64,000 nt of DNA from NCBI GenBank assembly GCA_026391435.1, contig JAPLEJ010000050.1:1-64000 (forward strand), written 5' to 3'. A program made the translations under genes and the position numbers. The notes beneath the pieces were generated by a model, which made no database searches, was not told where the DNA came from, and saw nothing but the letters and a program-made list of their open reading frames with translations. Below, one piece after another: positions 35,672 to 51,303 of the stretch (its first letter is position 1; the number at the start of each line of letters is the position of its first letter). This DNA is from Bacteroidota bacterium. Its GTDB lineage: Bacteria; Bacteroidota; Bacteroidia; Chitinophagales; Chitinophagaceae.

Positions 35672-35719
35672 ATGAACTTAAATAACCATACACATCATCA
35701 TTTTCTAACCAATAGGTAA
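35672..35719 (+). CDS. hisL: his operon leader peptide
   Basis: A 15-codon ORF encoding MNLNNHTHHHFLTNR with four His codons in five (CAT ACA CAT CAT CAT at 35687-35701). It lies 132 nt upstream of hisG, followed by a terminator hairpin, the classical layout of a ribosome-mediated attenuator. No Shine-Dalgarno sequence precedes it, and the predicted transcription start coincides with the AUG, so it may be translated leaderless. Confidence 0.88.
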   Translation: MNLNNHTHHHFLTNR

Positions 35720-35783
35720 GCTAAGGGTGTAGGTATGTTTTAATATTTATACAAAGGGCTTACTTACGAGTAGGCCCTTTTTT
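35713..35783 (+). promoter_or_regulatory. his attenuator (antiterminator/terminator switch)
   Basis: TAGGTAAGCT (35713-35722, overlapping the leader stop codon) can pair over 10 positions with GGCTTACTTA (35757-35766), the 5' arm and loop of the terminator. A ribosome stalled at the His codons (ending 35701) leaves this segment free, forming the antiterminator and allowing hisG transcription. A ribosome reaching the stop at 35717 covers it, so the terminator forms. This is inferred from complementarity by eye. Confidence 0.82.
35753..35783 (+). terminator. his attenuator terminator hairpin
   Basis: AAAGGGCTTACT pairs with AGTAGGCCCTTT around a TACG tetraloop (one G-U pair), then a T-run. It lies 20 nt before hisG. 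Confidence 0.92.
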
Positions 35784-35803
35784 AATGACTATAATTCAAA
35801 TTT

Positions 35804-36661
35804 ATGATGCGATTAAAATTAGCGATTCAAAAATCGGGACGATTACATGAGGATTCCATTAGAATGTTAAAGGAATGCGGTATTGACATTGAAAATGGGG
35901 TAAATAAATTAAAAGCAGAAGCGACCAATTTCCCTTTGGAGTTATTTTTTTTAAGGGATGACGATATTCCTCAATATGTTGAAGATGGGGTAGCCGATAT
36001 TGGATTTGTGGGTGAAAATGTAGTGTATGAAAAAGCCAAAAAGGTAGAAGTATCCTATAAATTAGGTTTCGGCAAATGCAGATTAAGTTTTGCTGTCAAC
36101 AAAAACGAAACGTTCACAGGGCCTAGTTATTTGTCTGGAAAAAAAATAGCAACAAGTTATCCTGTTTTGGTGCAACAATATTTAAATGAACACAAAATTC
36201 AAGCTGAGATTCATGAAATTAGTGGAAGCGTGGAAATTGCGCCTGGTATCGGTTTGGCTGATGTCATTTGTGATTTAGTCAGTAGTGGGTCTACTTTATT
36301 TATGAATGGACTTAAGGAAGCGGATACCATTTTAAATTCTCAAGCTGTTTTAATAAAACGCATGGGTTTAAATGAGGAAGCGACTGCCATTTTAAATAAA
36401 TTGTTGTTTAGGATGGAGTCGGTTAAAAAAGCCAAGAAAAATAAATATGTTTTATTAAATGCCCCTAATGAAAATTTAGAAAAAATTGTTTCTTTATTGC
36501 CAGGCATGAAAAGTCCAACAGTAGTTGCATTAGCAACACCAGGATGGAGCAGCGTTCATAGTGTTATTGCAGAATCTGATTTTTGGGACATTATCGAAAA
36601 ATTAAAACAAGCAGGAGCGGAAGGCATATTAGTTGTACCTATCGAAAAAATGATTTTATAA
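35804..36661 (+). CDS. hisG: ATP phosphoribosyltransferase, long form (HisG-L)
   Basis: First step of histidine synthesis, joining ATP and PRPP. 285 residues, so it carries the C-terminal regulatory domain of the hexameric long form and needs no HisZ. Motifs: LAIQKSGRLHEDS, DDIPQYVEDGVADIGFVGEN, the PRPP loop EIAPGIGLADVICDLVSSGSTL (starts EIAPGIG), and C-terminal ATPGWSSVHSVIAESDFWDII. It is the first gene after the his attenuator. ATG 35807 is an equally possible start. Confidence 0.97.
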   Translation: MMRLKLAIQKSGRLHEDSIRMLKECGIDIENGVNKLKAEATNFPLELFFLRDDDIPQYVEDGVADIGFVGENVVYEKAKKVEVSYKLGFGKCRLSFAVNKNETFTGPSYLSGKKIATSYPVLVQQYLNEHKIQAEIHEISGSVEIAPGIGLADVICDLVSSGSTLFMNGLKEADTILNSQAVLIKRMGLNEEATAILNKLLFRMESVKKAKKNKYVLLNAPNENLEKIVSLLPGMKSPTVVALATPGWSSVHSVIAESDFWDIIEKLKQAGAEGILVVPIEKMIL

Positions 36662-49918: not shown

Positions 49919-49931
49919 CGATAAAATAAAT

Positions 49932-50690
49932 ATGTTAACCAAACGAATTATACCTTGTTTAGATATTAAAGACGGCCGAACGGTGAAGGGGGTCAACTTT
50001 GAGCAATTGCGTGATGCGGGCGACCCCATTGAATTAGGGGCATTATATGCAAGTCAGGGTGCGGACGAATTGGTTTTCTTAGACATTACGGCTACTGTTG
50101 AAAAGCGCAAAACCCTAAGTGAGTTGGTCAATAAAATTGCACATCGTATCAATATTCCATTTACGGTAGGCGGAGGTATAAAAACAGAAGAGGATGTGAG
50201 TATATTATTACAAAATGGGGCAGATAAAATTTCAATTAATACCGCAGCCTTTTTAAATCCTAACATCATACAAAGTTTTGCCAAAAATTTTGGTAGTCAA
50301 TGTGTGGTATTGGCCATTGATACCAAATGCGAGTCAGATGGCCAATGGTATGTTTATTTAAATGGAGGCCGTCAAAAAACAGATACTTTAACAACAGAAT
50401 GGGCAAAAAAAGCAGTAGATCTAGGCGTGGGTGAAATTTTATTAACTTCGATGAATCATGATGGCACCAAACAAGGGTTTGCTTTAGATATTACAGCCAC
50501 CTTATCAGAAACCTTGTCAGTGCCCATTATTGCATCAGGAGGGGGTGGAAATGAATCTCATTTTTATGATGTATTTACCAATGGTAAGGCAGATGCTGCC
50601 TTAGCTGCAAGTATATTTCACTATAAGGAATTAGCGATACCTACTTTAAAAAATTATTTACACGAAAAAGGAATACCCATTAGATTATAA
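49932..50690 (+). CDS. hisF: Imidazole glycerol phosphate synthase, cyclase subunit
   Basis: 252 residues, TIM barrel homologous to HisA. RIIPCLDIKDGRTVKGVNFEQ (starts RIIPCLD), ELVFLDITATVEKR, FTVGGGIKTEEDV, ADKISINTAA, AIDTKC, LLTSMNHDGTKQGF with the second catalytic Asp, and IIASGGGGNESHF. Forms IGP and AICAR with HisH. Confidence 0.97.
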   Translation: MLTKRIIPCLDIKDGRTVKGVNFEQLRDAGDPIELGALYASQGADELVFLDITATVEKRKTLSELVNKIAHRINIPFTVGGGIKTEEDVSILLQNGADKISINTAAFLNPNIIQSFAKNFGSQCVVLAIDTKCESDGQWYVYLNGGRQKTDTLTTEWAKKAVDLGVGEILLTSMNHDGTKQGFALDITATLSETLSVPIIASGGGGNESHFYDVFTNGKADAALAASIFHYKELAIPTLKNYLHEKGIPIRL

Positions 50691-50709
50691 ACTTTATTTA
50701 ATTTTAATT

Positions 50710-51303
50710 ATGAATATCAATTTTACAAAATATGCAGATGGACTGGTGCCTGCGATCATTCAGGATGCTCAAACCAAAACAGTGTTAATGTTGGGTTTTA
50801 TGAATCAAGCGGCCATAGATCTTACTGTGTCCGAAAAAAAAGTAACCTTTTTTAGTCGAACCAAAAATAGATTATGGACCAAGGGAGAAGAGAGCGGCCA
50901 TTACCTTCATTATATAAGTATGGAAGTAGATTGTGATCAAGATACTTTGCTAATACAAGCGAACCCATCTGGTCCTGTTTGTCATAATGGGACCGCTACT
51001 TGTTGGGGCGATGATCATGCTAGCTCCTTTTTGCCTCAGCTTGAATCCATTATTGCGGAACGAAAAAATGCAGATCCAGCCTCATCCTACGTGGCAAGTT
51101 TGTTTGAAAAGGGAATCAATAAAATTGCACAAAAAGTAGGGGAGGAAGCGGTTGAATTAGTTATAGAAGCAAAGGATAGTAATCATGATTTGTTTTTAAA
51201 TGAATCAGCAGATTTATTATTTCATTACCTTATACTACTTCAAGTAAAAGGTTACCAGCTTAGTGATGTTAGTGAAATTTTAAAACAAAGGCATAAAAAC
51301 TAA
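50710..51303 (+). CDS. hisI: Bifunctional PR-AMP cyclohydrolase / PR-ATP pyrophosphatase
   Basis: 197 residues (HisIE). Residues about 1-105 are HisI: PAIIQDAQTKTVLMLGFMNQ, TFFSRTKNRLWTKGEESGH, DCDQDTLL and GPVCHNGTATCW zinc ligands. Residues about 110-197 are HisE: SYVASLFEKGINKIAQKVGEEAVE and ESADLLFHYLILL. Steps two and three of histidine synthesis. Last his gene. No terminator follows before the TlpA-like gene 34 nt on. Confidence 0.96.
   Translation: MNINFTKYADGLVPAIIQDAQTKTVLMLGFMNQAAIDLTVSEKKVTFFSRTKNRLWTKGEESGHYLHYISMEVDCDQDTLLIQANPSGPVCHNGTATCWGDDHASSFLPQLESIIAERKNADPASSYVASLFEKGINKIAQKVGEEAVELVIEAKDSNHDLFLNESADLLFHYLILLQVKGYQLSDVSEILKQRHKN

What the first reader, a model, noticed from the sequence alone, without database searches (positions are those of the whole stretch)
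35672..51303. Complete trp operon inserted inside the his operon
Gene order read directly: hisG-D-C, two redox genes, hisB, trpL-trpE-G-D-C-F-B-A, then hisH-A-F-IE. Without the insertions the his order is the common hisGDCBHAFI(E). The trp block brings its own promoter and attenuator, and hisH begins 6 nt after trpA. Both pathways draw on PRPP, and TrpF and HisA catalyse similar isomerisations, so linkage may matter for flux. I know of no described system of this form but cannot search.
Basis: partly seen in the sequence, partly recalled or inferred. Interest (0 to 1): 0.75.

Follow-up and report, generated by a model that had tools for sequence, protein, structure and literature searches.

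The report
Trp switch that also reads histidine
In many bacteria of the family Chitinophagaceae the complete set of tryptophan genes sits inside the histidine operon, and the predicted RNA switch in front of the tryptophan genes carries a histidine codon beside its tryptophan codons, so that it likely opens when the cell runs short of either amino acid.

Summary
Window 35672-52423 reads hisL-hisGDC-[sugar dehydrogenase-like, cytochrome c]-hisB-trpL-trpEGDCFBA-hisHAFIE-thioredoxin. It is no assembly artefact: hisH directly follows trpA in 69 of 100 loci drawn from the family. The arrangement itself is known: PMC8305728 (2021) names two species with trp genes inside the his operon. Its regulation appears undescribed in the papers searched. 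hisHAFIE shows no conserved promoter of its own, so its transcription would have to pass the trp attenuator. The trp leader peptide reads Trp-Trp-Trp-His. His directly follows the Trp run in 99 of 102 leaders with hisH behind trpA, against 18 of 68 without; the three exceptions have His within two codons. The tie survives tree-aware tests (likelihood p 2.7e-5 within the family; independent pairs, median p 0.031), though other leader positions shift too. The codon varies between CAT and CAC, which points to selection on the amino acid, and leaders reduced to one Trp codon still read Trp-His. Best explanation: a two-input (Trp or His) ribosome-mediated attenuator that lets half of the histidine operon be controlled from inside the trp operon. 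This is inferred from comparison; no expression data exist here.

The parts
35672..35719 (+). hisL, His-rich leader peptide MNLNNHTHHHFLTNR, no Trp
   Evidence: read from sequence; a His-rich leader is found in all 35 nested loci scored that show hisG with enough upstream DNA
35753..35783 (+). predicted hisL terminator hairpin (12 bp) and T run
   Evidence: fold of 35672-35790, z -3.1; the simple terminator scan does not list it; no antiterminator was shown for hisL
35804..36661 (+). hisG, ATP phosphoribosyltransferase
   Evidence: TIGR00070 191 bits
36661..37956 (+). hisD, histidinol dehydrogenase
   Evidence: TIGR00069 508 bits
37960..39030 (+). hisC, histidinol-phosphate aminotransferase
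   Evidence: TIGR01141 361 bits
39093..40349 (+). glucose/sorbosone dehydrogenase-like protein (extra gene)
   Evidence: PF07995 60.6 bits
40361..40786 (+). cytochrome c (extra gene)
   Evidence: PF00034 48.4 bits
40798..41928 (+). hisB, bifunctional histidinol-phosphatase/IGP dehydratase
   Evidence: NF003937 501 bits
41966..41997 (+). predicted trp promoter, Bacteroidota type TTTG-N20-TAAATTTG (consensus recalled)
   Evidence: only exact match in 35.5-52.45 kb, 0.47 expected; within one mismatch before trpL in 85 of 100 linked loci scored, 2 of 100 shuffled; not significant as a pattern in the whole window
42005..42061 (+). trpL, leader peptide MIKTNNIWWWHTNSVGVL
   Evidence: sequence; similar leaders in relatives
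42026..42034 (+). three Trp codons of trpL
   Evidence: sequence
42035..42037 (+). His codon (CAT) directly after the Trp run
   Evidence: His at this place in 99 of 102 linked and 18 of 68 unlinked leaders
42047..42054 (+). region 2 GTTGGGGT, predicted antiterminator 5' arm, 12 nt after the start of the His codon
   Evidence: fold, geometry, shuffle control
42093..42100 (+). region 3 ACCCTAAC, shared by predicted antiterminator and terminator
   Evidence: fold
42089..42125 (+). predicted trpL terminator hairpin (13 bp) and T run
   Evidence: first in the list of 18; 10.9 expected in shuffles
42145..43557 (+). trpE
   Evidence: TIGR00564 414 bits, best family but under its cut-off of 517.7
43586..44155 (+). 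trpG
   Evidence: TIGR00566 170 bits
44203..45195 (+). trpD
   Evidence: TIGR01245 303 bits
45192..45995 (+). trpC
   Evidence: PF00218 237 bits, over cut-off
45985..46611 (+). trpF
   Evidence: NF002298 162 bits, best family but under its cut-off of 215
46598..47803 (+). trpB
   Evidence: TIGR00263 563 bits
47816..48589 (+). trpA
   Evidence: TIGR00262 216 bits
48596..49186 (+). hisH, 6 nt after trpA
   Evidence: TIGR01855 213 bits
49202..49918 (+). hisA
   Evidence: TIGR00007 242 bits
49932..50690 (+). hisF
   Evidence: TIGR00735 351 bits
50710..51303 (+). hisIE
   Evidence: NF002747 268 bits
51338..52423 (+). thioredoxin-fold (AhpC/TSA) protein with DUF4369; a similar gene follows hisIE or trpA in many relatives
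   Evidence: PF00578 88.8 bits; gene orders

Best explanation
The trp leader inside the his operon is predicted to be a ribosome-mediated attenuator that likely takes two inputs, opening when the ribosome stalls either on its three Trp codons or on the His codon that follows them, so that hisHAFIE behind trpA would still be made when histidine alone is short. Shown by sequence and calls: the gene order, two leader ORFs in series (hisL with His codons and no Trp, trpL with Trp plus His), overlapping alternative hairpins at trpL, a conserved promoter motif before trpL and none before hisH, and the association of the His codon with hisH behind trpA. Inferred: that transcripts run from the trp promoter (and through hisB) into hisHAFIE, that a stall on the His codon leaves region 2 free to pair with region 3, and that this raises hisHAFIE expression on histidine starvation, with the trp genes induced as a side effect. 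For E. coli trp, a model paper states that a stall on the codon directly after the two Trp codons also gives the antiterminator (PMC1183508, Fig. 6 legend, passage seen).
For: His directly after the Trp run in 99 of 102 leaders with hisH next to trpA against 18 of 68 without; family draw alone 55 of 58 against 9 of 22. The three exceptions read HWWWQ, HWWWQ and WWWQH, so a His codon lies within two codons in 102 of 102 against 20 of 68 (this wider rule was set after seeing them). His directly before the run: 17 of 102 against 0 of 68. Likelihood test on a TrpEDCBA tree: p 5.8e-9 (170 tips) and 2.7e-5 (80 family tips; 2.2e-4 with the eight-rate model); fitted His-loss rate in the family 0.16 linked, 3.5 unlinked. 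Independent pairs: His goes with linkage in 5.7 of 10 supported pairs on average, never the other way, median p 0.031, range 0.016-0.125. The codon is CAT 44 and CAC 10 in linked family leaders, but CAA or CAG in 6 of 22 unlinked ones and 3 of 57 located linked ones. Three linked leaders cut to one Trp keep Trp-His (L097, L219, L266). Region 2 starts a median 13 nt after the first base of that codon, IQR 12-14, and is found in 86 of 97 linked leaders with a recognised terminator against 21.1 in shuffles. Promoter motif before trpL in 85 of 100 linked loci scored; none within 80 nt of hisH in those 100; within 600 nt 9 of 100 against 12 of 100 shuffled.
Against: His follows the Trp run in 18 of 68 leaders without hisH behind trpA, so it has other causes or persists by descent; 8 of 21 unlinked family tips keep it. 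Other leader positions also differ with linkage (Gly+7 p 4.8e-4, Asn+3 p 0.0084, Arg+6 p 0.011), so part of the signal is general leader divergence; His+1 is the strongest (1.8e-5) but not alone. Region 2 too is recognised less often in unlinked leaders (22 of 52 against 7.6 shuffled). The independent-pairs test is only just under 0.05 at the median. In the window one His codon stands against three Trp codons, so the His response may be weak. Ribosome reach is recalled, not measured. No expression data.
Confidence: 0.62

Rival explanations
1. The leader is an ordinary Trp-only attenuator; the His codon is a chance or ancestral residue, and hisHAFIE simply rides on trp regulation, histidine supply being set by feedback on HisG and by hisL.
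For: Trp-run-then-His also occurs without linkage: 18 of 68, e.g. Marinifilum L100, L103, L107, L108. Other leader positions also track linkage.
Against: 99 of 102 against 18 of 68, a low fitted loss rate in linked lineages, CAT/CAC change at the third base, and retention of His when Trp codons are lost.
Confidence: 0.22
2. The CAT/CAC triplet is kept for RNA pairing or spacing (region 1 or a pause hairpin), not for its amino acid.
For: The first and third bases of the codon are paired in the predicted minimum-energy fold of the window's leader; spacing to region 2 is tight.
Against: The third base varies T/C in linked family leaders (44 and 10), while CAA/CAG, which keep the first two bases, are commoner in unlinked ones (6 of 22 against 3 of 57). 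In the three exceptions a His codon lies before the run or one codon further on.
Confidence: 0.1
3. The arrangement is selected for co-expression of the two PRPP-using pathways (flux balance or TrpF/HisA similarity), regulation being secondary.
For: Both pathways use PRPP (established biochemistry); linkage looks old and is common in the family.
Against: Linkage changes repeatedly on the tree, and 19 of 23 separated genomes have hisB and hisH side by side elsewhere; nothing sequence-based tests flux.
Confidence: 0.06

Closest known systems
trp-interrupted his operon of Thermoflavifilum thermophilum and Filimonas lacunae (PMC8305728, passages seen)
   Same: trp genes inside the his operon, short intergenic gaps, thought to be one transcription unit
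   Different: that paper names two species and has no expression data and no mention of a leader peptide (the word 'leader' is not in its main text); here the arrangement is surveyed over 100 genera of the family (84 with a trpA match) and tied to the leader's His codon
E. coli trpL attenuator (PMC1183508, passages seen)
   Same: leader peptide with neighbouring Trp codons, alternative 2:3 and 3:4 hairpins, terminator before trpE
   Different: three Trp codons then His; Bacteroidota-type promoter; his genes behind it; no Rfam leader model matches the window at gathering score
Multi-amino-acid leaders such as ilvGMEDA and thr of enterobacteria (recalled)
   Same: one attenuator reads more than one amino acid because the operon serves more than one
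   Different: those amino acids come from shared pathways; Trp and His come from two pathways joined here by gene order
Leader-peptide attenuation in Bacteroidota: Flavobacterium psychrophilum transcriptome (PMC9723704, two passages seen)
   Same: structured 5' regions with signs of leader-peptide attenuation upstream of amino-acid operons
   Different: trp is not mentioned in its main text and no two-amino-acid leader is described in the passages seen
Actinobacterial his-trp neighbourhoods with PriA (PMC13055916, search listing and start of abstract only; gene order recalled)
   Same: his and trp genes near each other
   Different: there the link is one enzyme serving both pathways after loss of trpF; here trpF and hisA are both present

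Membership tests
Ribosome-mediated transcription attenuator (trpL type) | short leader ORF with control codons for the operon's amino acid | tested here: met
   trpL with Trp run in the window and relatives
Ribosome-mediated transcription attenuator (trpL type) | terminator hairpin with T run after the leader ORF, before the first gene | tested here: met
   for the window; found for 97 of 101 located linked leaders and 52 of 68 unlinked
Ribosome-mediated transcription attenuator (trpL type) | alternative antiterminator overlapping or close behind the leader codons | tested here: met
   for the window; 86 of 97 linked against 21.1 shuffled, 22 of 52 unlinked against 7.6
Ribosome-mediated transcription attenuator (trpL type) | read-through rises when the cognate aminoacyl-tRNA is short | not testable with these tools
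   needs reporter or RNA-seq data
Multi-input attenuator (ilvGMEDA type) | control codons for each amino acid made by the genes behind it | tested here: met
   Trp and His codons side by side in the window and in 99 of 102 linked leaders; within two codons in 102 of 102 by a rule set after seeing the exceptions
Multi-input attenuator (ilvGMEDA type) | shortage of either amino acid relieves termination | not testable with these tools
   inference only
trp-interrupted his operon (PMC8305728) | trp genes between his genes, same strand, short gaps | tested here: met
Rfam leader families | match at gathering score | tested here: not met
   only a small SRP RNA and one tRNA matched in the window

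The most novel reading that the evidence does not exclude
A two-input Trp/His attenuator: by keeping a His codon beside the Trp run, much of a bacterial family lets half of its histidine operon be switched from inside the trp operon, and several lineages that pulled the two operons apart lost the His codon, a natural experiment in which gene order dictates leader-peptide sequence.
Probability: 0.6. Interest if true: 0.72.

Novelty: new variant of a known kind. Interest (0 to 1): 0.6.

Why it matters
It would show how two separate amino-acid pathways can be merged into one transcription unit without losing separate control: the attenuator of the enclosed operon acquires, or is kept for, a control codon of the other pathway. 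Lineages in which the operons are apart, and where the codon has often decayed, make the question 'does operon membership shape leader peptides?' directly testable, and give a simple sequence rule for predicting which amino acids an attenuator senses.

Tried and rejected
Assembly artefact: rejected, the same junctions recur in dozens of separate assemblies. Second trpC or hisA/hisF copies elsewhere in the genome: none found (genome 84% complete). Own promoter for hisH: a site with one mismatch at 48209 in trpA is not conserved in the relatives compared. Transfer of an intact his operon as the cause of separation: the HisHAF tree with six separated his operons is poorly resolved and shows no single source; left open. 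Specificity control: other leader residues also track linkage, which lowers my confidence. The promoter pattern alone is not significant in the window (3 matches against 3.0 expected); only its conserved place speaks for it. Literature: nine searches (listings seen) gave the 2021 report of the gene order and, in the listings, no report of a Trp/His leader; most subscription papers are not in the library.

Rows dropped: of the 109 family genomes with trpA over the cut-off, 100 regions were fetched and four; the window's own genome and four with partial or split matches (G299, G283, G256, G324) were not. 80 of the 100 entered the test; the rest lack trpE, a recognised leader, or enough DNA behind trpA. 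Of the phylum draw (127 over the cut-off) 60 loci were fetched, about one per genus; 34 of the 60 entered the test. Leaders of L171, L189 and L199 were dropped as unclear; the short loci L001-L039 were not used. L255 could not be placed again for the codon counts. L241 was counted as unlinked although hisH lies 7.1 kb behind trpA on its contig; leave it out.
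Full report
OBSERVATION. NCBIfam and Pfam name the genes from hisG (35804) to hisIE (51303) in the order hisGDC, a glucose/sorbosone dehydrogenase-like gene, a small cytochrome c, hisB, trpEGDCFBA, hisHAFIE; trpE and trpF match their own families best but under the curated cut-offs. Two leader peptides are read directly from the sequence: hisL at 35672 (MNLNNHTHHHFLTNR) and trpL at 42005 (MIKTNNIWWWHTNSVGVL). The gap between trpA and hisH is 6 nt. A thioredoxin-fold gene follows 34 nt after hisIE. The genome (1.9 Mb, 84% complete) has one IGPS match and two HisA/HisF-type matches.

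NOT AN ARTEFACT, AND WIDESPREAD. A scan of one genome per species with TrpC gave 80 loci; among the record titles are Sediminibacterium and Chitinophagaceae, from which I name the family. hisH follows trpA in 48 of the 80; 17 show no trpA, 3 are cut, 12 have something else. In a draw over the window's family (147 genomes of 100 genera; 109 genomes with trpA over the cut-off) I fetched 100 trpA regions: hisH follows trpA in 69, the thioredoxin-fold gene follows directly in 20, and neither in 11. In 60 loci of the phylum draw, all outside the family, hisH follows trpA in 1, with a 2.2-kb gap. The whole 15-gene nest is seen in 25 of 53 scan loci and 10 of 58 family-draw loci with trpE and at least 3.5 kb upstream; hisB is next upstream of trpE in 36 and 24 of them. 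The trpA-hisH link is thus the commoner half. Where hisB precedes trpE and hisC is visible, the dehydrogenase-like gene is upstream of trpE in 36 of 36 scan loci and 10 of 21 family loci; in the printed orders it lies between hisC and hisB.

WHAT WAS KNOWN. PMC8305728 (2021; passages seen) already states that in Thermoflavifilum thermophilum and Filimonas lacunae the his operon is interrupted by trp genes, probably one transcription unit, with no expression data. The arrangement is therefore known; the word 'leader' does not occur in that paper's main text. Nine literature searches listed no description of a leader that senses Trp and His together. PMC9723704 (two passages seen) reports signs of leader-peptide attenuation upstream of amino-acid operons in Flavobacterium psychrophilum, so the mechanism as such is not foreign to the phylum.

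THE REGULATORY ANATOMY. The only exact Bacteroidota-type promoter (TTTG-N20-TAnnTTTG; consensus recalled) in the operon is at 41966-41997, seven bases before trpL; 0.47 are expected. In the whole window the pattern is not significant. Its place is conserved: with at most one mismatch it lies before trpL in 85 of 100 linked loci scored, against 2 of 100 shuffled. Before hisH it is found in 0 of those 100 within 80 nt and in 9 of 100 within 600 nt, against 12 of 100 shuffled. The trpL RNA folds into a 13-bp terminator with a T run; region 2 (GTTGGGGT, 42047-42054) repeats part of the terminator's 3' arm and can pair with region 3 (42093-42100) instead. Of 97 linked leaders with a recognised terminator, 86 have such a region 2 at 9-30 nt behind the Trp run, against 21.1 expected from shuffles; in unlinked leaders it is 22 of 52 against 7.6. 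hisL is a second, upstream leader with His codons and no Trp; a His-rich leader is found in all 35 nested loci scored that show hisG with enough upstream DNA, and not in three outgroup loci. A terminator hairpin follows hisL in the fold, though the simple scan does not list it and no antiterminator was shown there. hisHAFIE therefore lies behind the trp attenuator whichever of the two promoters is used.

THE HIS CODON. In one search every locus with hisB before trpE and a visible leader reads Trp-Trp-Trp-His, except L022 (genome G078, another family), where hisA and hisF lie on another contig and the leader reads Trp-Trp-Trp-Asn. I then asked whether His follows the Trp run because hisH lies behind trpA. 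Over 170 loci with a recognised leader and a known neighbour of trpA: linked 99 of 102, unlinked 18 of 68. In the family draw alone: 55 of 58 and 9 of 22. The three linked exceptions read HWWWQ, HWWWQ and WWWQH; with the rule 'His within two codons of the run', set after seeing them, the counts are 102 of 102 and 20 of 68. A Pagel-type likelihood test on a TrpEDCBA tree rejects independence (p 5.8e-9 for all tips, 2.7e-5 for the 80 family tips; 2.2e-4 for the latter with the eight-rate model), with His lost about 20 times faster in unlinked lineages. A more conservative test on independent pairs gives 5.7 of 10 supported pairs in the expected direction, none against, 4.3 without difference, median p 0.031, range 0.016-0.125. 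The codon is CAT in 44, CAC in 10 and CAA in 3 located linked family leaders; in unlinked ones CAT 9, CAA or CAG 6, other 7. Three linked genomes have shrunk the leader to a single Trp and kept Trp-His (L097, L219, L266), and four have Trp-Trp-His (L218, L233, L257, L296). Unlinked short runs read Trp-Trp-Gln (L263, L283), Trp-Trp-Leu (five tips) and once Trp-Trp-His (L260).

RESULTS AGAINST. His follows the run in 18 of 68 leaders without hisH, and 8 of 21 unlinked family tips keep it. Other leader positions also track linkage: Gly+7 (p 4.8e-4), Asn+3 (0.0084) and Arg+6 (0.011), against 1.8e-5 for His+1; Thr+2, Ser/Leu+4, Asn-3 and the length of the Trp run do not. Without the five-tip WWLS clade His+1 has p 1.4e-4 and Gly+7 0.0013. 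The tie is the strongest but not the only one.

HISTORY. On the TrpEDCBA tree linkage appears deep in the family, with 13 changes over the whole tree by parsimony; several inner nodes are weakly supported, and one unlinked locus of another family (L141) falls inside, so several gains are not excluded. Of 23 separated genomes checked, 21 have hisB and 21 have hisH, side by side elsewhere in 19; six such operons were read and are hisB-H-A-F-IE. In 20 of 100 family loci the thioredoxin-fold gene directly follows trpA, and in L205, L209 and L277 a dehydrogenase-like gene still lies upstream of trpE, which looks like a scar of a former nest. How the his genes came together again is unresolved.

MECHANISM. 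With both amino acids plentiful, the ribosome would clear the leader, region 2 be covered, and the terminator form. When Trp is short the ribosome would stall on the Trp codons and region 2 pair with region 3. When His alone is short, hisL would open and, because the codon after the Trp run is His, so would trpL. For E. coli trp a stall on the codon following the two Trp codons is stated to yield the antiterminator too (PMC1183508, Fig. 6 legend, passage seen). Region 2 begins 12-14 nt after the start of the His codon in the middle half of linked leaders, about the downstream reach of a ribosome with that codon in its A site (recalled), so His is about the last position at which a stall leaves region 2 free. 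All steps from stalling onwards are inferred.

VERDICT.

Noticed in passing
L158, L165, L189 (phylum draw): trpA is followed by hisG (gaps 162-1325 nt), a different trp-his link outside the family; their trp leaders carry His codons upstream of or beside the Trp codons (e.g. L189 ...HVSLHLWGWH...).
   Followed up: partly
L045: A record titled Comamonas sp. encodes a his-trp nest with TrpC 79% identical to the window's; the title looks wrong.
   Followed up: no
window 63343-63420 (-): The only tRNA gene found in the window is tRNA-His, about 12 kb from the his-trp cluster.
   Followed up: no
L280, L284, L288, L289, L295: A clade of the family draw has a different trp leader type, WWLSRWQ, with Trp codons in two groups and no hisH behind trpA.
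   Followed up: no
L171, L178, L179, L180, L191: Trp leaders with spaced Trp codons (e.g. FTWAWFW) elsewhere in the phylum.
   Followed up: no
hisB-trpE gap in L034, L088, L089, L091, L135: The gap is about 0.7-2.1 kb instead of about 220 nt; what fills it was not examined.
   Followed up: no
L124 (G078, another family of the order): hisGDCB is followed by trpEGDC, but the genome's best hisA and hisF matches lie on another contig; the leader reads WWWN, without His beside the run.
   Followed up: partly
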